Assembly: GCA_025964295.1 (NCBI GenBank) | Contig: JAOPZD010000112.1 | Location: forward strand, 1-9,473 | DNA length: 9,473 nt | Direction of reading: 5' to 3' | Source: Conexibacter sp. | GTDB lineage: Bacteria > Actinomycetota > Thermoleophilia > Solirubrobacterales > Solirubrobacteraceae | Shown: in pieces, positions 5,435 to 9,411 of the stretch | Layout of the letters: each line of letters begins with the position of its first letter | Numbering within the stretch: position 1 is the stretch's first letter | Made by a program: the position numbers and the translations under genes | The notes under the pieces: model-generated | Told to the model about the DNA's origin: nothing | The model's input: the letters and a program-made list of their open reading frames with translations, nothing else | Databases searched by the model: none

Positions 5435-6322
5435 TCAGTCCCGGACGAGGTAGTGGATGGGCTTGAGCCGCAGAAGATTGCGGCCTTCCTCATCAAGCTT
5501 GTCGTAGTACTCGATCCACAGGCGGAGCAGTCGCGGGCCATCGATGAGAATGAGCCGGCGCTGGTCTCCGCGTGCCAGCGCCATCGCGCTCCGCGTGAAG
5601 CCGCCCAGCGCGATGAAGACCCCGACGTCGTCGGTGGCGATCGTCGAGAGGAACTGCTGGACGTCACCGGAGTCCTGCTTGCTCTTTGGCGTCCGCTTGG
5701 CCTGACCTTTGATGCGGCGGCCGTAAACGCCGATCGCGTCGGCGTAGGCGACGAGGTCGATCCCGCCGTCGGGACCGGGCGGCGACACCCACACGACCTC
5801 ATGCCCGAGAGCCTCGATCAGCTTTCGGCAGATCTCCTGGAACACGAAGGGATCGAGCTTGCCGACGTAGTCCAGGATCTCGGTTCGAGCCTGGTCTTCG
5901 GCGTCCTCCAGCGTCGTCGCGACCTTCACCTCGTCCTCATCGTCGACGTCGTCGGTGACGTCAGGTCGCCGCTCCTTCTTCCACTGGCGATACAGCGTCC
6001 TCGCAGCCTTGAACAGCGCTTCCGGGGACCGATGCTGGGCTAGCGCGGCCGTCCCGGCGTCGGTGATCGTCCAGATGCCGCCGCTCTTGTTCATCCAACC
6101 GGCGTGCACCGCCGTGATGGTCGTGAAGCGGACGATGCGTGGAAACCGCCGACCACCGGAGTCGAAGGATCCCTCCTCGTATTCGGTGAGCGTCAACGCA
6201 CGCTCGACGCCTTGAATGGCGTCCTTCGCGGCGACCCCATCTGCTTCGGCGGCCAACAACGGAAGCAACGCCAGAAGGATCTCGCCCTTGCGCTGGACGG
6301 TGGTCAAAGCCGGATCGGACAC
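5435..6322 (-). CDS. Mrr-like restriction endonuclease (PD-(D/E)xK fold, QxK variant)
   Basis: This 295-residue protein has two parts. Residues about 10-95 look like the winged-helix Mrr N-terminal domain, ending KSGGIWTITDAGTAAL. An acidic linker at 118-142 (DVTDDVDDEDE) follows. Residues 150-290 are an Mrr catalytic domain: FVFQEICRKLIEALGHEV (Glu163), GPDGGIDLVAY (Asp189) and IKGQAKR (Gln207, Lys209). Together these make the D...QxK active site typical of Mrr. Mrr proteins are usually type IV enzymes that cut DNA carrying foreign methylation, or are stress-activated nucleases. The GTG at 6322 gives MSDPALTT. Its stop lies 30 bp from the stop of the convergent regulator gene, so this is one edge of the inserted block. 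It is on the same strand as the XhoI-like pair but separated from it by a plus-strand ORF, so it probably has its own promoter. Confidence 0.85.
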   Translation of the reverse strand: MSDPALTTVQRKGEILLALLPLLAAEADGVAAKDAIQGVERALTLTEYEEGSFDSGGRRFPRIVRFTTITAVHAGWMNKSGGIWTITDAGTAALAQHRSPEALFKAARTLYRQWKKERRPDVTDDVDDEDEVKVATTLEDAEDQARTEILDYVGKLDPFVFQEICRKLIEALGHEVVWVSPPGPDGGIDLVAYADAIGVYGRRIKGQAKRTPKSKQDSGDVQQFLSTIATDDVGVFIALGGFTRSAMALARGDQRRLILIDGPRLLRLWIEYYDKLDEEGRNLLRLKPIHYLVRD

Positions 6323-6396: not shown

Positions 6397-6648
6397 ATGG
6401 GGGGCGAACTTTTGCGAAGCGACGCTACTAGCGGCATGACCAGGTTTGAAACGATCGCTCGACTGGTTGCCGCTCTGGGCCCTGCCGGATGTGCGTTGGT
6501 CGCCGACGCGCTTGAAGCGCTCGATCCCGTCGATGTCGAAGCGCAGACGGCGACAGAGGCACTGGCCGAGGAATTCCGGCACCTCGCCCAGCCGGCAACC
6601 GCGGAAGCGTTCCCAGGCCCATCCGACTCAACGATTCGCAGCCAATAG
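6397..6648 (+). CDS. Small unrecognised acidic protein inside the restriction block
   Basis: This ORF of 83 codons starts at an ATG at 6397, preceded 4 bp upstream by GGGAGA. A second in-frame ATG at 6436 would give 70 residues starting MTRFETIARLVAALGP. The product is alanine-rich and acidic, with a likely helical segment LVAALGPAGCALVADALEALD and a second helix ATEALAEEFRHLA. I recognise no helix-turn-helix, metal site or membrane segment. It is divergent from the mrr-like gene (74 bp between starts), and its last 21 bp overlap the end of the XhoI-like endonuclease gene tail to tail. That place would suit a regulator, an inhibitor or an antitoxin-like partner, but nothing in the sequence demonstrates any of these. 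An antisense 92-codon ORF (6304-6582, minus) has less natural composition, so I prefer the plus-strand frame. Confidence 0.45.
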   Translation: MGGELLRSDATSGMTRFETIARLVAALGPAGCALVADALEALDPVDVEAQTATEALAEEFRHLAQPATAEAFPGPSDSTIRSQ

Positions 6649-7338
6649 GTACGCCGCTCGGGCACGAATCGCGGCCATGAAAGCAGCGAAGTCCAGGTCG
6701 TGGGCCGGCTCATGGATGGGCGACCCAAGATCTGCGGAGGAGGTGACAAAGCACACGGCGTCATACAGGCGCTCCAACAGAAGCCGCCGACAGAAGATCT
6801 CGTAACGCTGCTTGTACGACGCGCCCTTGAAGACCGGGTCGACCTCATAGAACGGCTCGCGCACGCGCACCGGGCTGGTCGACTTGGGCGCCTCCTCGAG
6901 AAGGAAGAGATATCCGAGCCACGGCCGGGCGGTGCCGAATCGACCCTCGCGGAAGGCCGTCCACACGTCGGTGGCGGAGCCGATGGCTTCTTCCGTACGG
7001 TTGTTATAGTTGTTGCCGAACGACGGGCCTACCTGGCTCTTGAACTCAATCGCGGCGGCGAGGGTGCCCTCATGCACCACGACGAGGTCCCACTTCTTCT
7101 CAGGGCGGAAGTACCCGGGAAGTTCGACAGAGGAGGACCGGCTGATGGAGTGTGCAGGGAAGCCCGCATCGATGAAGATCCGTTCCATCACCAGGGCCAT
7201 GGCGTCCATGTGGGCGCCGCCTGTAACCGCCCCTCGTCGCCCGGCGTCGGCCTTGCCCAAAGCGAGCTGCTTGTCCTGCTGACCAGTGCGCACTTCCCAG
7301 TGGGACCGGATGGCGCTTTCGAACTCTTCTCGGTTCAT
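6628..7338 (-). CDS. Type II restriction endonuclease, XhoI/PaeR7I family (predicted CTCGAG)
   Basis: This 236-residue protein is close in length to XhoI and PaeR7I (about 245). The core reads ELPGYFRPEKKWDLVVV (Asp84), then AIEFKSQVGPSFGNNYNNR (Glu98, Lys100), which is the PD-(D/E)xK site. It continues EEAIGSATDVWTAFREGRFG, RPWLGYLFLLEEAPKS and YKQRYEIFCRRLLLERLYDAVCF. These segments are hallmark XhoI-family blocks as I recall them from PaeR7I, so recognition of C^TCGAG is likely but inferred. The ATG at 7338 lies 32 bp after the methyltransferase stop, so M and R form one leftward operon with M first, an order that favours methylation before cleavage. The catalytic residues and overall length argue for an intact, active enzyme. 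GC content is clearly lower than in the pyridine cluster, which suggests transfer of the whole block. Confidence 0.9.
   Translation of the reverse strand: MNREEFESAIRSHWEVRTGQQDKQLALGKADAGRRGAVTGGAHMDAMALVMERIFIDAGFPAHSISRSSSVELPGYFRPEKKWDLVVVHEGTLAAAIEFKSQVGPSFGNNYNNRTEEAIGSATDVWTAFREGRFGTARPWLGYLFLLEEAPKSTSPVRVREPFYEVDPVFKGASYKQRYEIFCRRLLLERLYDAVCFVTSSADLGSPIHEPAHDLDFAAFMAAIRARAAYLLAANR
6895..6900. other. CTCGAG site inside the XhoI-like endonuclease gene
   Basis: The predicted target of this R-M system occurs in its own endonuclease gene, so the locus depends on the partner methyltransferase for protection. The other CTCGAG sites I found in the window are at 62-67, 185-190, 2416-2421, 3131-3136 and 5168-5173, so the site is not avoided here. 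Confidence 0.7.
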
Positions 7339-7370: not shown

Positions 7371-9071
7371 CTACCGCGGGATCTCGCCGATGTCATACAG
7401 CTCCAGCGCAATCCGGGTGGCGCGCTCCGCATCGCGCCCCCGAAAGGCCTTTCTCAGCTCCGTGCGGGCGCTGGGCTTCACCTTCGACAGCTCGGGAACC
7501 CGGATGCGTCGCAGGTATTGGGCCTGGAACCGGAAATAGCCGCCTCTCATCTTGACCGCATAGGCCTCCACGAACAACTGGGCGACTCTGGACAGCAACA
7601 GCCCTCCGAGCACCTCGGCATCCCAGCGGTCGGACATCACCCAGTAGAGGTTGTGATGTGGGTATGTCGTGCCGTCATCAAGGACGGGATGAGCCGCCGC
7701 CTTGATGTCCGGGATCAGCAGCTTCGTCCGCTTGGTCAGCAGGGGGTCGACCCGATCGATCGTGCGATACCAGTGCCGGGGCCGGCGGGCGGCCACGTTG
7801 CGCTTCAGAAGCGCGGCGGCATTGTCCTCGTAGTACGACGCGAGGCGGGGAAAGTCCTCAAGTTCCACGAGACCGGAGCCGTCCGCGGCCCACGGGCTGA
7901 CGAGATAGTGCCCCGACCACTCAAGTGTTCCTGTCATGGTGTCGCGACCCATGGCCATCGGCACGAGTTGCGAGGACTCGACAAGGTCGGGGTCTTGGGT
8001 GATGTACACCTTGTCCGCACCGGTCGCGACACCGATGCCGACGCGCGTCCCGGTCGCCGGATCCTCCAATGGCGGTAGACGCTGTTCGAGGTCCTTGACC
8101 AGCGCCAGCCGTTCCGGCGAGCCGGTGGGCCACGAGGCGCTGCCCTCGAACCACCCGGGCAGCTCCGCAGCGTCGAAGTCCGGATCGTGGACGGGTCGGG
8201 TGTGGCTCCAACGGCGAAGCCGCGCGGCCGCTTCCTCGTCGAACGAGCCATGGGCGTTGACCACCGTCGCGGTCCGTTGCTCGCCGCGCCGCAGAATCGT
8301 GATCGAGGGGTAGGCGGACACGTCATCAGCGAACGCATCCACGTCGTGCATCTCGATCGCGGCATCAACGGAGTACCGCTTCGCAACCAGCTCGCGAAGC
8401 CGCGCCCCGTACTGATTGCGCATCCATCGATCGGCGCAGATGAAGCCCAGGACTCCGTCCCGCTTGAGGGCCTTCAGGCCAACCTCATAGAAGCCGACGA
8501 AGATGTCGGCCCGCCCCCCCATCGTCTGACAAACACGGCGGTAGGCAGCCCCTCGCACGATCGAGACGTCTTCGAGACGAATGTATGGCGGGTTCCCGAT
8601 GACAAAATCCGCGACCTGATCCCGATGGTCAGAAAGCAGGAAGTCGTCGTGATGGACCCATCCCTCGGCCATGCGCTCGGCCCGCGCGCCATCGATATCG
8701 CGGGCCTGTAGCAACTCCGAGATGAGCCGCCGCGCAGCCAGCACGTGGGACGGTTGGAGATCACATGCATAGAGAGCGTTCGCTGCGTCGTCGAGGGGAC
8801 GGCCGTGGCTCTCACATGAGGCGACGAGGCGCTCCACCATGGGACCGACGAACGCGCCGTCGCCACAGGCCGGCTCGACTGCATGCAACGACGCGAGGTC
8901 GCGATCAACGGTGAATCCCGCCAGGTCGAGGATCAGCTCAACGACCCAACGCCGCGTGAACACGGCGCCATACTCGGCGACCTCGTCATCTTCGATCGCT
9001 GCGAGGAGCGACAGCTCCAACGAATCGCGGTCTTTCAGAAGCGCGAGCTGCTCAGGGCCAACGGACACCAC
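7371..9071 (-). CDS. Type II N6-adenine DNA methyltransferase (partner of the XhoI/PaeR7I-like nuclease)
   Basis: This methyltransferase of up to 566 residues shows gamma-class order. Motif X is YGAVFTRRWVVELILDLAGF (residues 34-53), and motif I is VEPACGDGAF (65-74) for S-adenosylmethionine binding. A motif III-like HHDDFLL (140-146) follows, then motif IV NPPY (160-163) at the catalytic site. The C-terminal target-recognition region contains GIGVATGADKVYI (345-357) and, near the end, AVKMRGGYFRFQAQYLRRIRVP, both typical of TaqI/Eco57I-type N6-adenine enzymes. Paired with a XhoI-family nuclease, it should methylate the adenine of CTCGAG. Starts are tandem GTG codons at 9071 and 9068. The second sits 7 bp from the -10-like TACAGT, the better spacing for a leaderless mRNA, and would give MSVGPEQ and 565 residues. 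No Shine-Dalgarno site is present. A LexA-like box directly abuts the start. Confidence 0.9.
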   Translation of the reverse strand: MVSVGPEQLALLKDRDSLELSLLAAIEDDEVAEYGAVFTRRWVVELILDLAGFTVDRDLASLHAVEPACGDGAFVGPMVERLVASCESHGRPLDDAANALYACDLQPSHVLAARRLISELLQARDIDGARAERMAEGWVHHDDFLLSDHRDQVADFVIGNPPYIRLEDVSIVRGAAYRRVCQTMGGRADIFVGFYEVGLKALKRDGVLGFICADRWMRNQYGARLRELVAKRYSVDAAIEMHDVDAFADDVSAYPSITILRRGEQRTATVVNAHGSFDEEAAARLRRWSHTRPVHDPDFDAAELPGWFEGSASWPTGSPERLALVKDLEQRLPPLEDPATGTRVGIGVATGADKVYITQDPDLVESSQLVPMAMGRDTMTGTLEWSGHYLVSPWAADGSGLVELEDFPRLASYYEDNAAALLKRNVAARRPRHWYRTIDRVDPLLTKRTKLLIPDIKAAAHPVLDDGTTYPHHNLYWVMSDRWDAEVLGGLLLSRVAQLFVEAYAVKMRGGYFRFQAQYLRRIRVPELSKVKPSARTELRKAFRGRDAERATRIALELYDIGEIPR

Positions 9072-9087
9072 GCGAACTGTAGTTCGA
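9072..9087 (-). promoter_or_regulatory. Putative LexA/SOS box at the methyltransferase start
   Basis: The minus strand reads TCGAACTACAGTTCGC. It contains CGAAC-N4-GTTCG, a perfect inverted repeat, and differs by one base from the mycobacterial SOS consensus TCGAAC-N4-GTTCGA. The inverted repeat starts one base upstream of the first GTG and contains the likely -10 hexamer TACAGT (9076-9081), so a bound repressor would block RNA polymerase. I found no second GAAC-N4-GTTC in the window. Binding by LexA is inferred from the match. Confidence 0.65.
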
Positions 9088-9411
9088 CCCGTGGATGACT
9101 CTGCTCGTCGAGAGCATCCGGCCGGTGAGCGCGATTTGCCACCGAGATCAGGTCAGCGCAGCATCTGCCCCCCAGTTGGGTCGAACCAGACCGAGCACGA
9201 CGAGCGTGGTGTCGGGTGGTGGCGTGAGGTCGTGTGCCCGTCATCTAGGGGCCCAGCGCCTCGGCCCGCGGGCGCAGCGCTCCCAGAGGCGGTCCAGCTC
9301 GTCGCCCAGCTCGCGCGGGGCGTTTGTGCTGGGCCGGCGGTCTGCGACTTAAGGCCCATGGAAACCGGGACCCGCTCTGCCCCAGAGTGCGACGCAGTTC
9401 ATCGCCCACCG
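9088..9411. other. Stretch without a convincing gene, right edge of the restriction block
   Basis: These ~320 bp hold only short ORFs with unnatural Arg/Ser/Pro-rich composition. The minus strand around 9240-9345 carries an open frame without a start, ending ELGDELDRLWERCARGPRRWAPR, which might be the decayed C-terminus of an older gene. A 10-bp palindrome GCCCGCGGGC lies near 9270, with no run of T, so it is not a clear terminator. The promoter of the rightmost gene should lie in the last 100 bp, but I cannot pick out reliable -35 and -10 boxes. Confidence 0.4.

What the first reader, a model, noticed from the sequence alone, without database searches (positions are those of the whole stretch)
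9068..9087. SOS (LexA) box over the promoter and start codon of a type II R-M operon
CGAAC-N4-GTTCG sits directly on the likely -10 of the methyltransferase-first operon and differs in one base from the mycobacterial SOS consensus. If LexA binds, methylase and nuclease expression would rise on DNA damage or phage replication stress. Basal methylation must still protect the host, so LexA may damp an already strong leaderless promoter. Alternatively, the box could time methylation of repaired DNA. R-M control is usually by C proteins or by the methylase itself, and damage-linked control would be unusual.
Basis: partly seen in the sequence, partly recalled or inferred. Interest (0 to 1): 0.8.

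Follow-up and report, generated by a model that had tools for sequence, protein, structure and literature searches.

The report
DNA-damage switch on a methylase gene
A short palindrome in front of a DNA-methylating defence gene resembles the binding site of the bacterial DNA-damage repressor LexA; near-perfect LexA-type sites stand at the same place in a related group of these genes, so damage control of the methylase looks likely there and possible but unproven here.

Summary
The palindrome is real: GCGAACTGTAGTTCGA at 9072-9087 matches TCGAAC-N4-GTTCGA at 11 of 12 fixed bases; 0.017 exact CGAAC-N4-GTTCG are expected in the window. It lies just before the methylase (M) start of an XhoI-like type II R-M pair. 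The motif recurs: in 797,577 bases of window plus 92 loci it occurs 9 times, 8 of them at an M start. In a wider survey all 11 members of one M clade carry a box (SH-aLRT 98). Hosts of five boxed loci have the GAAC-N4-GTTC core before lexA, and in one of them before recA. So LexA control of M is well supported in that clade, by sequence alone. In two of its loci the nuclease gene is opposed and no second box was seen, so the methylase is the boxed gene there. The window's own site is weaker evidence: its inner bases (T/T) are disfavoured in its likely order (1 T in 58 lexA half-sites), its three nearest relatives with DNA lack the box, and its -10-like hexamer lies inside rather than beside it. 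I put LexA control in the window at about even: a weak, independent operator, or a chance palindrome.

The parts
9072..9087 (.). LexA-like palindrome GCGAACTGTAGTTCGA (core CGAAC-N4-GTTCG at 9073-9086)
   Evidence: 0.017 exact matches expected in the window
9076..9081 (-). TACAGT, a leaderless -10-like hexamer inside the palindrome
   Evidence: by eye, by comparison with TAGGCT-N6-ATG in L132 and L133; the sigma-70 scan found none
7371..9068 (-). methylase gene M (N6-adenine type; alternative start GTG 9071)
   Evidence: PF07669, PF12950, PF02384; PADLOC MTase_II E 1.2e-185
6628..7338 (-). restriction endonuclease gene R, XhoI family
   Evidence: PF04555 E 6.2e-74

Best explanation
The palindrome is a LexA operator laid over the promoter of the methylase gene. 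Bound LexA covers the -10 and start region and damps transcription; after DNA damage, RecA-triggered LexA cleavage frees the promoter and methylase output rises. Here the nuclease follows on the same strand and would probably rise too. The likely benefit is a methylation boost that protects host sites left unmethylated by repair and replication. Shown by computation: the motif, its recurrence before a clade of related M genes, and the same motif before lexA in related hosts. Inferred: LexA binding, induction and benefit. For the window the operator would be weak and independently arisen.
For: Motif present and rare. 8 of 9 CGAAC-N4-GTTCG in window plus 92 loci lie at M starts. 11 of 11 rows of one M clade boxed, SH-aLRT 98; label clustered, 0 of 500 shuffles as low. 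GAAC-N4-GTTC before lexA in five boxed hosts and in G002 and in 29 of 30 lexA loci examined of the order of G002. Perfect 16-mers near recA, a DnaE-type polymerase, DUF222/HNH genes and M. In 8 of 12 boxed loci a TANNNT ends on the first T of the box (by eye).
Against: Window inner bases are T/T: T in 1 of 58 lexA half-sites of the order; PWM 10.1 against 20.4-26.8 for 29 lexA sites; T/T class 3 seen against 1.9 expected among 75 listed of 434 sites. L001-L003 have no box, nor do the other M loci of the class and order with DNA. The window lies outside the boxed clade and its -10 is placed differently. The L019 bin has an alpha-type lexA repeat. No binding or expression data; window genome not held.
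Confidence: 0.5

Rival explanations
1. Chance palindrome: a leaderless -10 (TACAGT) whose flanks happen to read CGAAC and GTTCG; the M promoter of the window is not under LexA, as in its nearest relatives.
For: Nearest relatives L001-L003 have leaderless-looking M promoters without a box. T/T inner class is not enriched in the order. In 5 of 41 genomes of the order the palindrome is no commoner than its reversed control.
Against: 1.8e-4 exact matches expected per 100 bases, and it falls exactly where boxed relatives have theirs. Rough odds for function against chance 2.4, 9.7 or 48 with priors 0.005, 0.02 or 0.10.
Confidence: 0.37
2. Operator of another regulator, such as a controller protein or a local repressor, that happens to share the outer arms with the LexA motif.
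For: Inner bases extend the arms to GAACT-N2-AGTTC, unlike the LexA sites of the order; this slightly resembles controller-protein boxes (recalled, from no call).
Against: The two small ORFs scanned near the pair have no Pfam or NCBIfam hit; other small ORFs were not scanned. Recalled controller boxes have another spacing.
Confidence: 0.12

Closest known systems
Actinobacterial LexA/SOS box: S. venezuelae tCGAAC-N4-GNNCGa (PMC9380542, passages seen); M. tuberculosis boxes of Table 1 in PMC8607333 (passages seen)
   Same: Same outer arms CGAAC and GTTCG with a 4-base centre, at a promoter.
   Different: The four M. tuberculosis boxes shown all have A..T as inner bases; the window has T..A. The target is an R-M methylase; the words restriction and methyltransferase do not occur in the main text of PMC9380542.
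Predicted SOS link of a restriction-modification cluster (HsdS, COG0732) in gut metagenomes (PMC3998124, passages seen)
   Same: LexA-type site predicted for an R-M gene in Firmicutes/Actinobacteria data.
   Different: Type I specificity subunit, not a type II methylase; a prediction, and the binding tests named in the abstract were for other genes.
Type I restriction alleviation, EcoKI (PMC11109961, passages seen)
   Same: Protects the host from its own R-M system when unmethylated sites appear after DNA damage or recombination.
   Different: Acts by ClpXP proteolysis of HsdR; that study found plasmid-caused alleviation independent of SOS. Here the proposed step is transcription of M.
B. subtilis ydiOP (BsuMI methylase) in the LexA regulon (recalled; searches did not show it)
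   Same: If recalled rightly, a type II methylase under LexA, with the XhoI target CTCGAG.
   Different: Cytosine methylase of another family; not verified here.

Membership tests
LexA operator (actinobacterial SOS box) | Outer palindrome CGAAC-N4-GTTCG | tested here: met
   9073-9086 exact
LexA operator (actinobacterial SOS box) | Inner half-site base A or G, as in LexA sites of the likely order (not required by the N4 motif given for S. venezuelae) | tested here: not met
   T/T; lexA half-sites A 53, G 3, C 1, T 1; PWM 10.1 against 20.4-26.8
LexA operator (actinobacterial SOS box) | Host LexA uses this motif | tested here: inconclusive
   Own genome not held; 29 of 30 lexA loci examined, of 57 found, in the order of G002 have GAAC-N4-GTTC upstream
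LexA operator (actinobacterial SOS box) | Kept before orthologous genes | tested here: inconclusive
   Kept in 11 of 11 rows of a sister clade; absent in nearest relatives L001-L003
LexA operator (actinobacterial SOS box) | LexA binding and induction by DNA damage | not testable with these tools
   needs a bench test
XhoI-like type II R-M system | XhoI-family nuclease beside an N6-adenine methylase | tested here: met
   PF04555 and PF07669/PF12950; PADLOC REase_II and MTase_II
XhoI-like type II R-M system | Recognition of CTCGAG | not testable with these tools
   CTCGAG occurs 6 times in the window, 7.1 expected; not informative
Controller-protein R-M system | Small HTH controller gene by the R-M genes | tested here: inconclusive
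   Two small ORFs scanned (6397-6648, 9095-9352) had no hit; other small ORFs not scanned

The most novel reading that the evidence does not exclude
LexA control of the methylase of XhoI-like R-M systems has arisen more than once in Actinomycetota. It is kept through exchange of the nuclease partner and even where the nuclease gene is opposed and unboxed, because the selected output is a burst of methylation that shields the damaged, newly copied chromosome from its own nuclease: a transcriptional counterpart, for type II systems, of type I restriction alleviation. The window is one such separate origin.
Probability: 0.35. Interest if true: 0.72.

Novelty: new variant of a known kind. Interest (0 to 1): 0.52.

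Why it matters
R-M genes are commonly described as governed by controller proteins or by the methylase itself (recalled). A conserved SOS box at the methylase promoter would tie protection from self-restriction to the DNA-damage response, and would make testable how type II systems avoid cutting host DNA that is left unmethylated after repair.

Tried and rejected
Own genome: none held and no file laid, so the host's own lexA and recA could not be read; the order of G002 served as a stand-in. One search failed because a locus was given where a G handle is needed; one search repeated it with G002.

Viral contigs: a single-protein search found no relative; the alignment search gave 12 loci, none with a box of 10 or more of 12 bases near the M start. 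Plasmids: 155 records, best listed identity 47.8%, not followed. Thermoleophilia-type class of G002: 10 of 399 genomes have an XhoI-family match; 9 of the 10 fetched regions hold M, none with more than 8 of 12 bases of the box.

Trace of the site in close relatives: the N-terminal extension of P0006 reads RTTVR in the frame where the window palindrome reads RTTVR, but agreement runs on upstream (by eye), so it speaks for promoter conservation and not for the box as such. A search for more such extensions scored none of 71 candidates.

L001 was labelled boxed in the tree. It is a match at +60 in the coding part with mismatches in the core, and I drop it. The label-change figure includes it, so the clustering test is quoted only. 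Rows: one search kept 127 different proteins (L157 and L158 too short); for I named 28 for removal, 12 second copies of the same genomes and 16 distant or long rows; 111 rows remained, since part of the named rows had already been merged as identical.

The PWM uses a small pseudocount, which enlarges the penalty for the window's inner bases; one search repeats the point with plain counts. By that PWM three other M boxes (L014 15.7, L019 12.9, L024 14.0) also fall below all 29 lexA sites.

Not every perfect 16-mer found lies near an SOS gene: of 14 sites, L111 (Solirubrobacterales G002), L112 and L115 showed no evident one, L107 looked like imuA by eye but had no Pfam hit, and L110 gave intein and LAGLIDADG matches only.

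Literature: nine searches of the openly licensed library showed in their listings no paper on an SOS box at a type II methylase promoter; a type I R-M link is predicted in PMC3998124. Most subscription papers are missing from that library.

Full report
What is there. The 16-mer GCGAACTGTAGTTCGA is at 9072-9087. It matches TCGAAC-N4-GTTCGA at 11 of 12 fixed positions and CGAAC-N4-GTTCG exactly. A first-order model of the window expects 0.017 exact matches in 9473 bases and 1.8e-4 per 100 bases. It lies directly before the methylase gene on the minus strand: M reads from GTG 9068 (several relatives begin VSV or MSV) or GTG 9071 to 7371, and R follows at 7338-6628. M carries Eco57I, TaqI_C and N6_Mtase domains, R the XhoI domain. 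A TACAGT that could be a leaderless -10 lies within the palindrome (by eye; the sigma-70 scan found none).

Recurrence. A scan of genome contigs with a 27-row alignment of M kept the best 80 of 521 confirmed stretches; viral contigs gave 12 loci. In 7 of these 92 loci (L007, L014, L017, L019, L024, L026, L068) a box with 10-12 of 12 bases lies near the M start. In 797,577 bases of window plus these loci, CGAAC-N4-GTTCG occurs 9 times: 8 at M starts, the window included, and one elsewhere in L055. In 395 genomes of the class of G005, 20 had M; 5 of the 20 loci have a box, two being repeats of L014 and L068 and three new, L145, L156 and L157; L155 has too little upstream DNA to judge. A search with the L014 methylase in 298 and 198 genomes of overlapping sets (28 and 20 with a match) gave 28 further loci, 7 of them with a box: L225, L226, L241 and L245 are new, three repeat L007, L145 and L017.

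Tree. In a tree of 116 methylase rows the 8 rows of one clade are all boxed (SH-aLRT 96), and the label (10 rows, window and L024 included) needs 3 changes, 0 of 500 shuffles being as low. With the added loci a clade of 11 rows has 11 boxes (SH-aLRT 98); L241 lies outside it but near, and the window and L024 lie elsewhere. Both trees are quick searches without bootstrap. The window's nearest rows are L001-L003 of Solirubrobacterales, which have no box. All 232 genomes given for the order of G002 were searched: 5 have M at E below 1e-100, and none of the five has a box. The window's box, if it works, therefore looks like a separate origin.

Architecture. In 8 of 12 boxed loci (L007, L014, L026, L145, L156, L225, L226, L245; the 12 are the clade of 11 plus L241) a TANNNT hexamer ends on the first T of the box (by eye), so the box would cover the start of transcription. 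L017, L019, L068 and L241 do not show this. In the window the hexamer is inside the box. Partners differ: an XhoI-family R on the same strand in L017 and L019 (and in L024 outside the clade), an opposed XhoI-family R in L007 and L014, and another nuclease in L026, L145, L156, L226, L241 and L245. Of that second kind, L026, L145 and L156 have no Pfam hit, and the two given to PADLOC, L026 and L145, match REase_II weakly (E 1.2e-8 and 2.3e-5). No R was found in L068 and L225, which are short on DNA. In L007 and L014 the fetched DNA holds no second GAAC-N4-GTTC, so the box there serves the methylase.

Is it a LexA motif? Five hosts of boxed loci (G004, G005, G006, G009, G010) and Solirubrobacterales G002 have GAAC-N4-GTTC upstream of lexA. 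The Hyphomicrobiales bin of L019 instead has a GAAC-N7-GAAC repeat there, and the lexA locus of G008, host of L024, is cut off. Perfect TCGAAC-N4-GTTCGA occurs 1-5 times in each of eight genomes, the reversed control 0-2 times. Of the 14 sites, one each lies near recA (L117), a DnaE-type polymerase (L118), nrdB (L116) and dnaA (L108), three near DUF222 or HNH genes (L106, L109, L113), and two at the methylase (L105, L114); the other five showed no named SOS family. In G005 the only perfect 16-mer is the methylase box. In the order of G002, 29 of the 30 lexA loci examined, of 57 found, have GAAC-N4-GTTC upstream. Over 41 genomes of that order CGAAC-N4-GTTCG occurs 434 times against 195 for the control; in 5 of the 41, G002 among them, there is no excess.

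Evidence against the window site. In the 29 lexA sites the base after GAAC is A in 53 of 58 half-sites, G in 3, C in 1 and T in 1; in the 12 boxed M loci it is A 15, G 7, T 2 of 24. The window is T/T. Its PWM score of 10.1 is below all 29 lexA sites (20.4-26.8), though three other M boxes (L014, L019, L024) are below them too. Among 75 listed palindromes from 9 of the 41 genomes, inner pairs A/A and A/G far exceed expectation (27 and 18 against 1.9 and 8.2), T/T does not (3 against 1.9). The inner T here may be set by the -10, since TACAGT needs it (inference).

Mechanism. Shown by computation: motif, placement, clade-wide retention, same motif before lexA in related hosts. Inferred: LexA represses M, damage releases it, and more methylase protects unmethylated host sites after repair. 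The loci with opposed R favour methylation as the output; in the window both genes would rise if transcribed together. Type I restriction alleviation meets a similar need by proteolysis, and one study found its plasmid-caused form independent of SOS (PMC11109961, passages). A link of a type I R-M cluster to the SOS network has been predicted from gut metagenomes (PMC3998124, passages), so an R-M and LexA link is not new in kind; an operator kept across a clade of type II methylase genes appears to be, within the nine searches named.

Host. No genome is held for the window. The flanking protein 1045-2097 matches one named Conexibacter stalactiti at 82% and one of a Solirubrobacterales MAG at 83%, and M groups with Solirubrobacterales rows. 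That order is likely, not proven.

Noticed in passing
L026:5680-6630, L145:3135-4082, also L156, L226, L241, L245: A second kind of nuclease partner downstream of boxed methylases: no Pfam hit in the three scanned and only weak PADLOC REase_II matches in the two scanned.
   Followed up: partly
L007:3741-4487 and L014:5717-6457: XhoI-family nuclease genes opposed to a boxed methylase, with no second box in the fetched DNA.
   Followed up: partly
L019:154-169 and L099:1427: A boxed R-M pair in a contig binned as Hyphomicrobiales, whose lexA has the alpha-type GAAC-N7-GAAC repeat: wrong binning, or a transferred pair in a host whose LexA would not read the box.
   Followed up: no
L156 and L157: Same box in two genomes; in L157 the methylase frame holds a TGA, so that copy may be decaying.
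   Followed up: no
window 5435-6322: An Mrr-like nuclease gene (PF04471, PF14338) beside the XhoI-like pair; by search no exact CGAAC-N4-GTTCG at its start.
   Followed up: no
window 9068-9094: The palindrome is flanked by a second pair of arms, CCACG and CGTGG, offset by three bases; meaning unknown.
   Followed up: no
L108:1501 and L116:1501: Perfect SOS-type 16-mers 171 bases before a dnaA frame and 138 bases before an nrdB-like gene.
   Followed up: no
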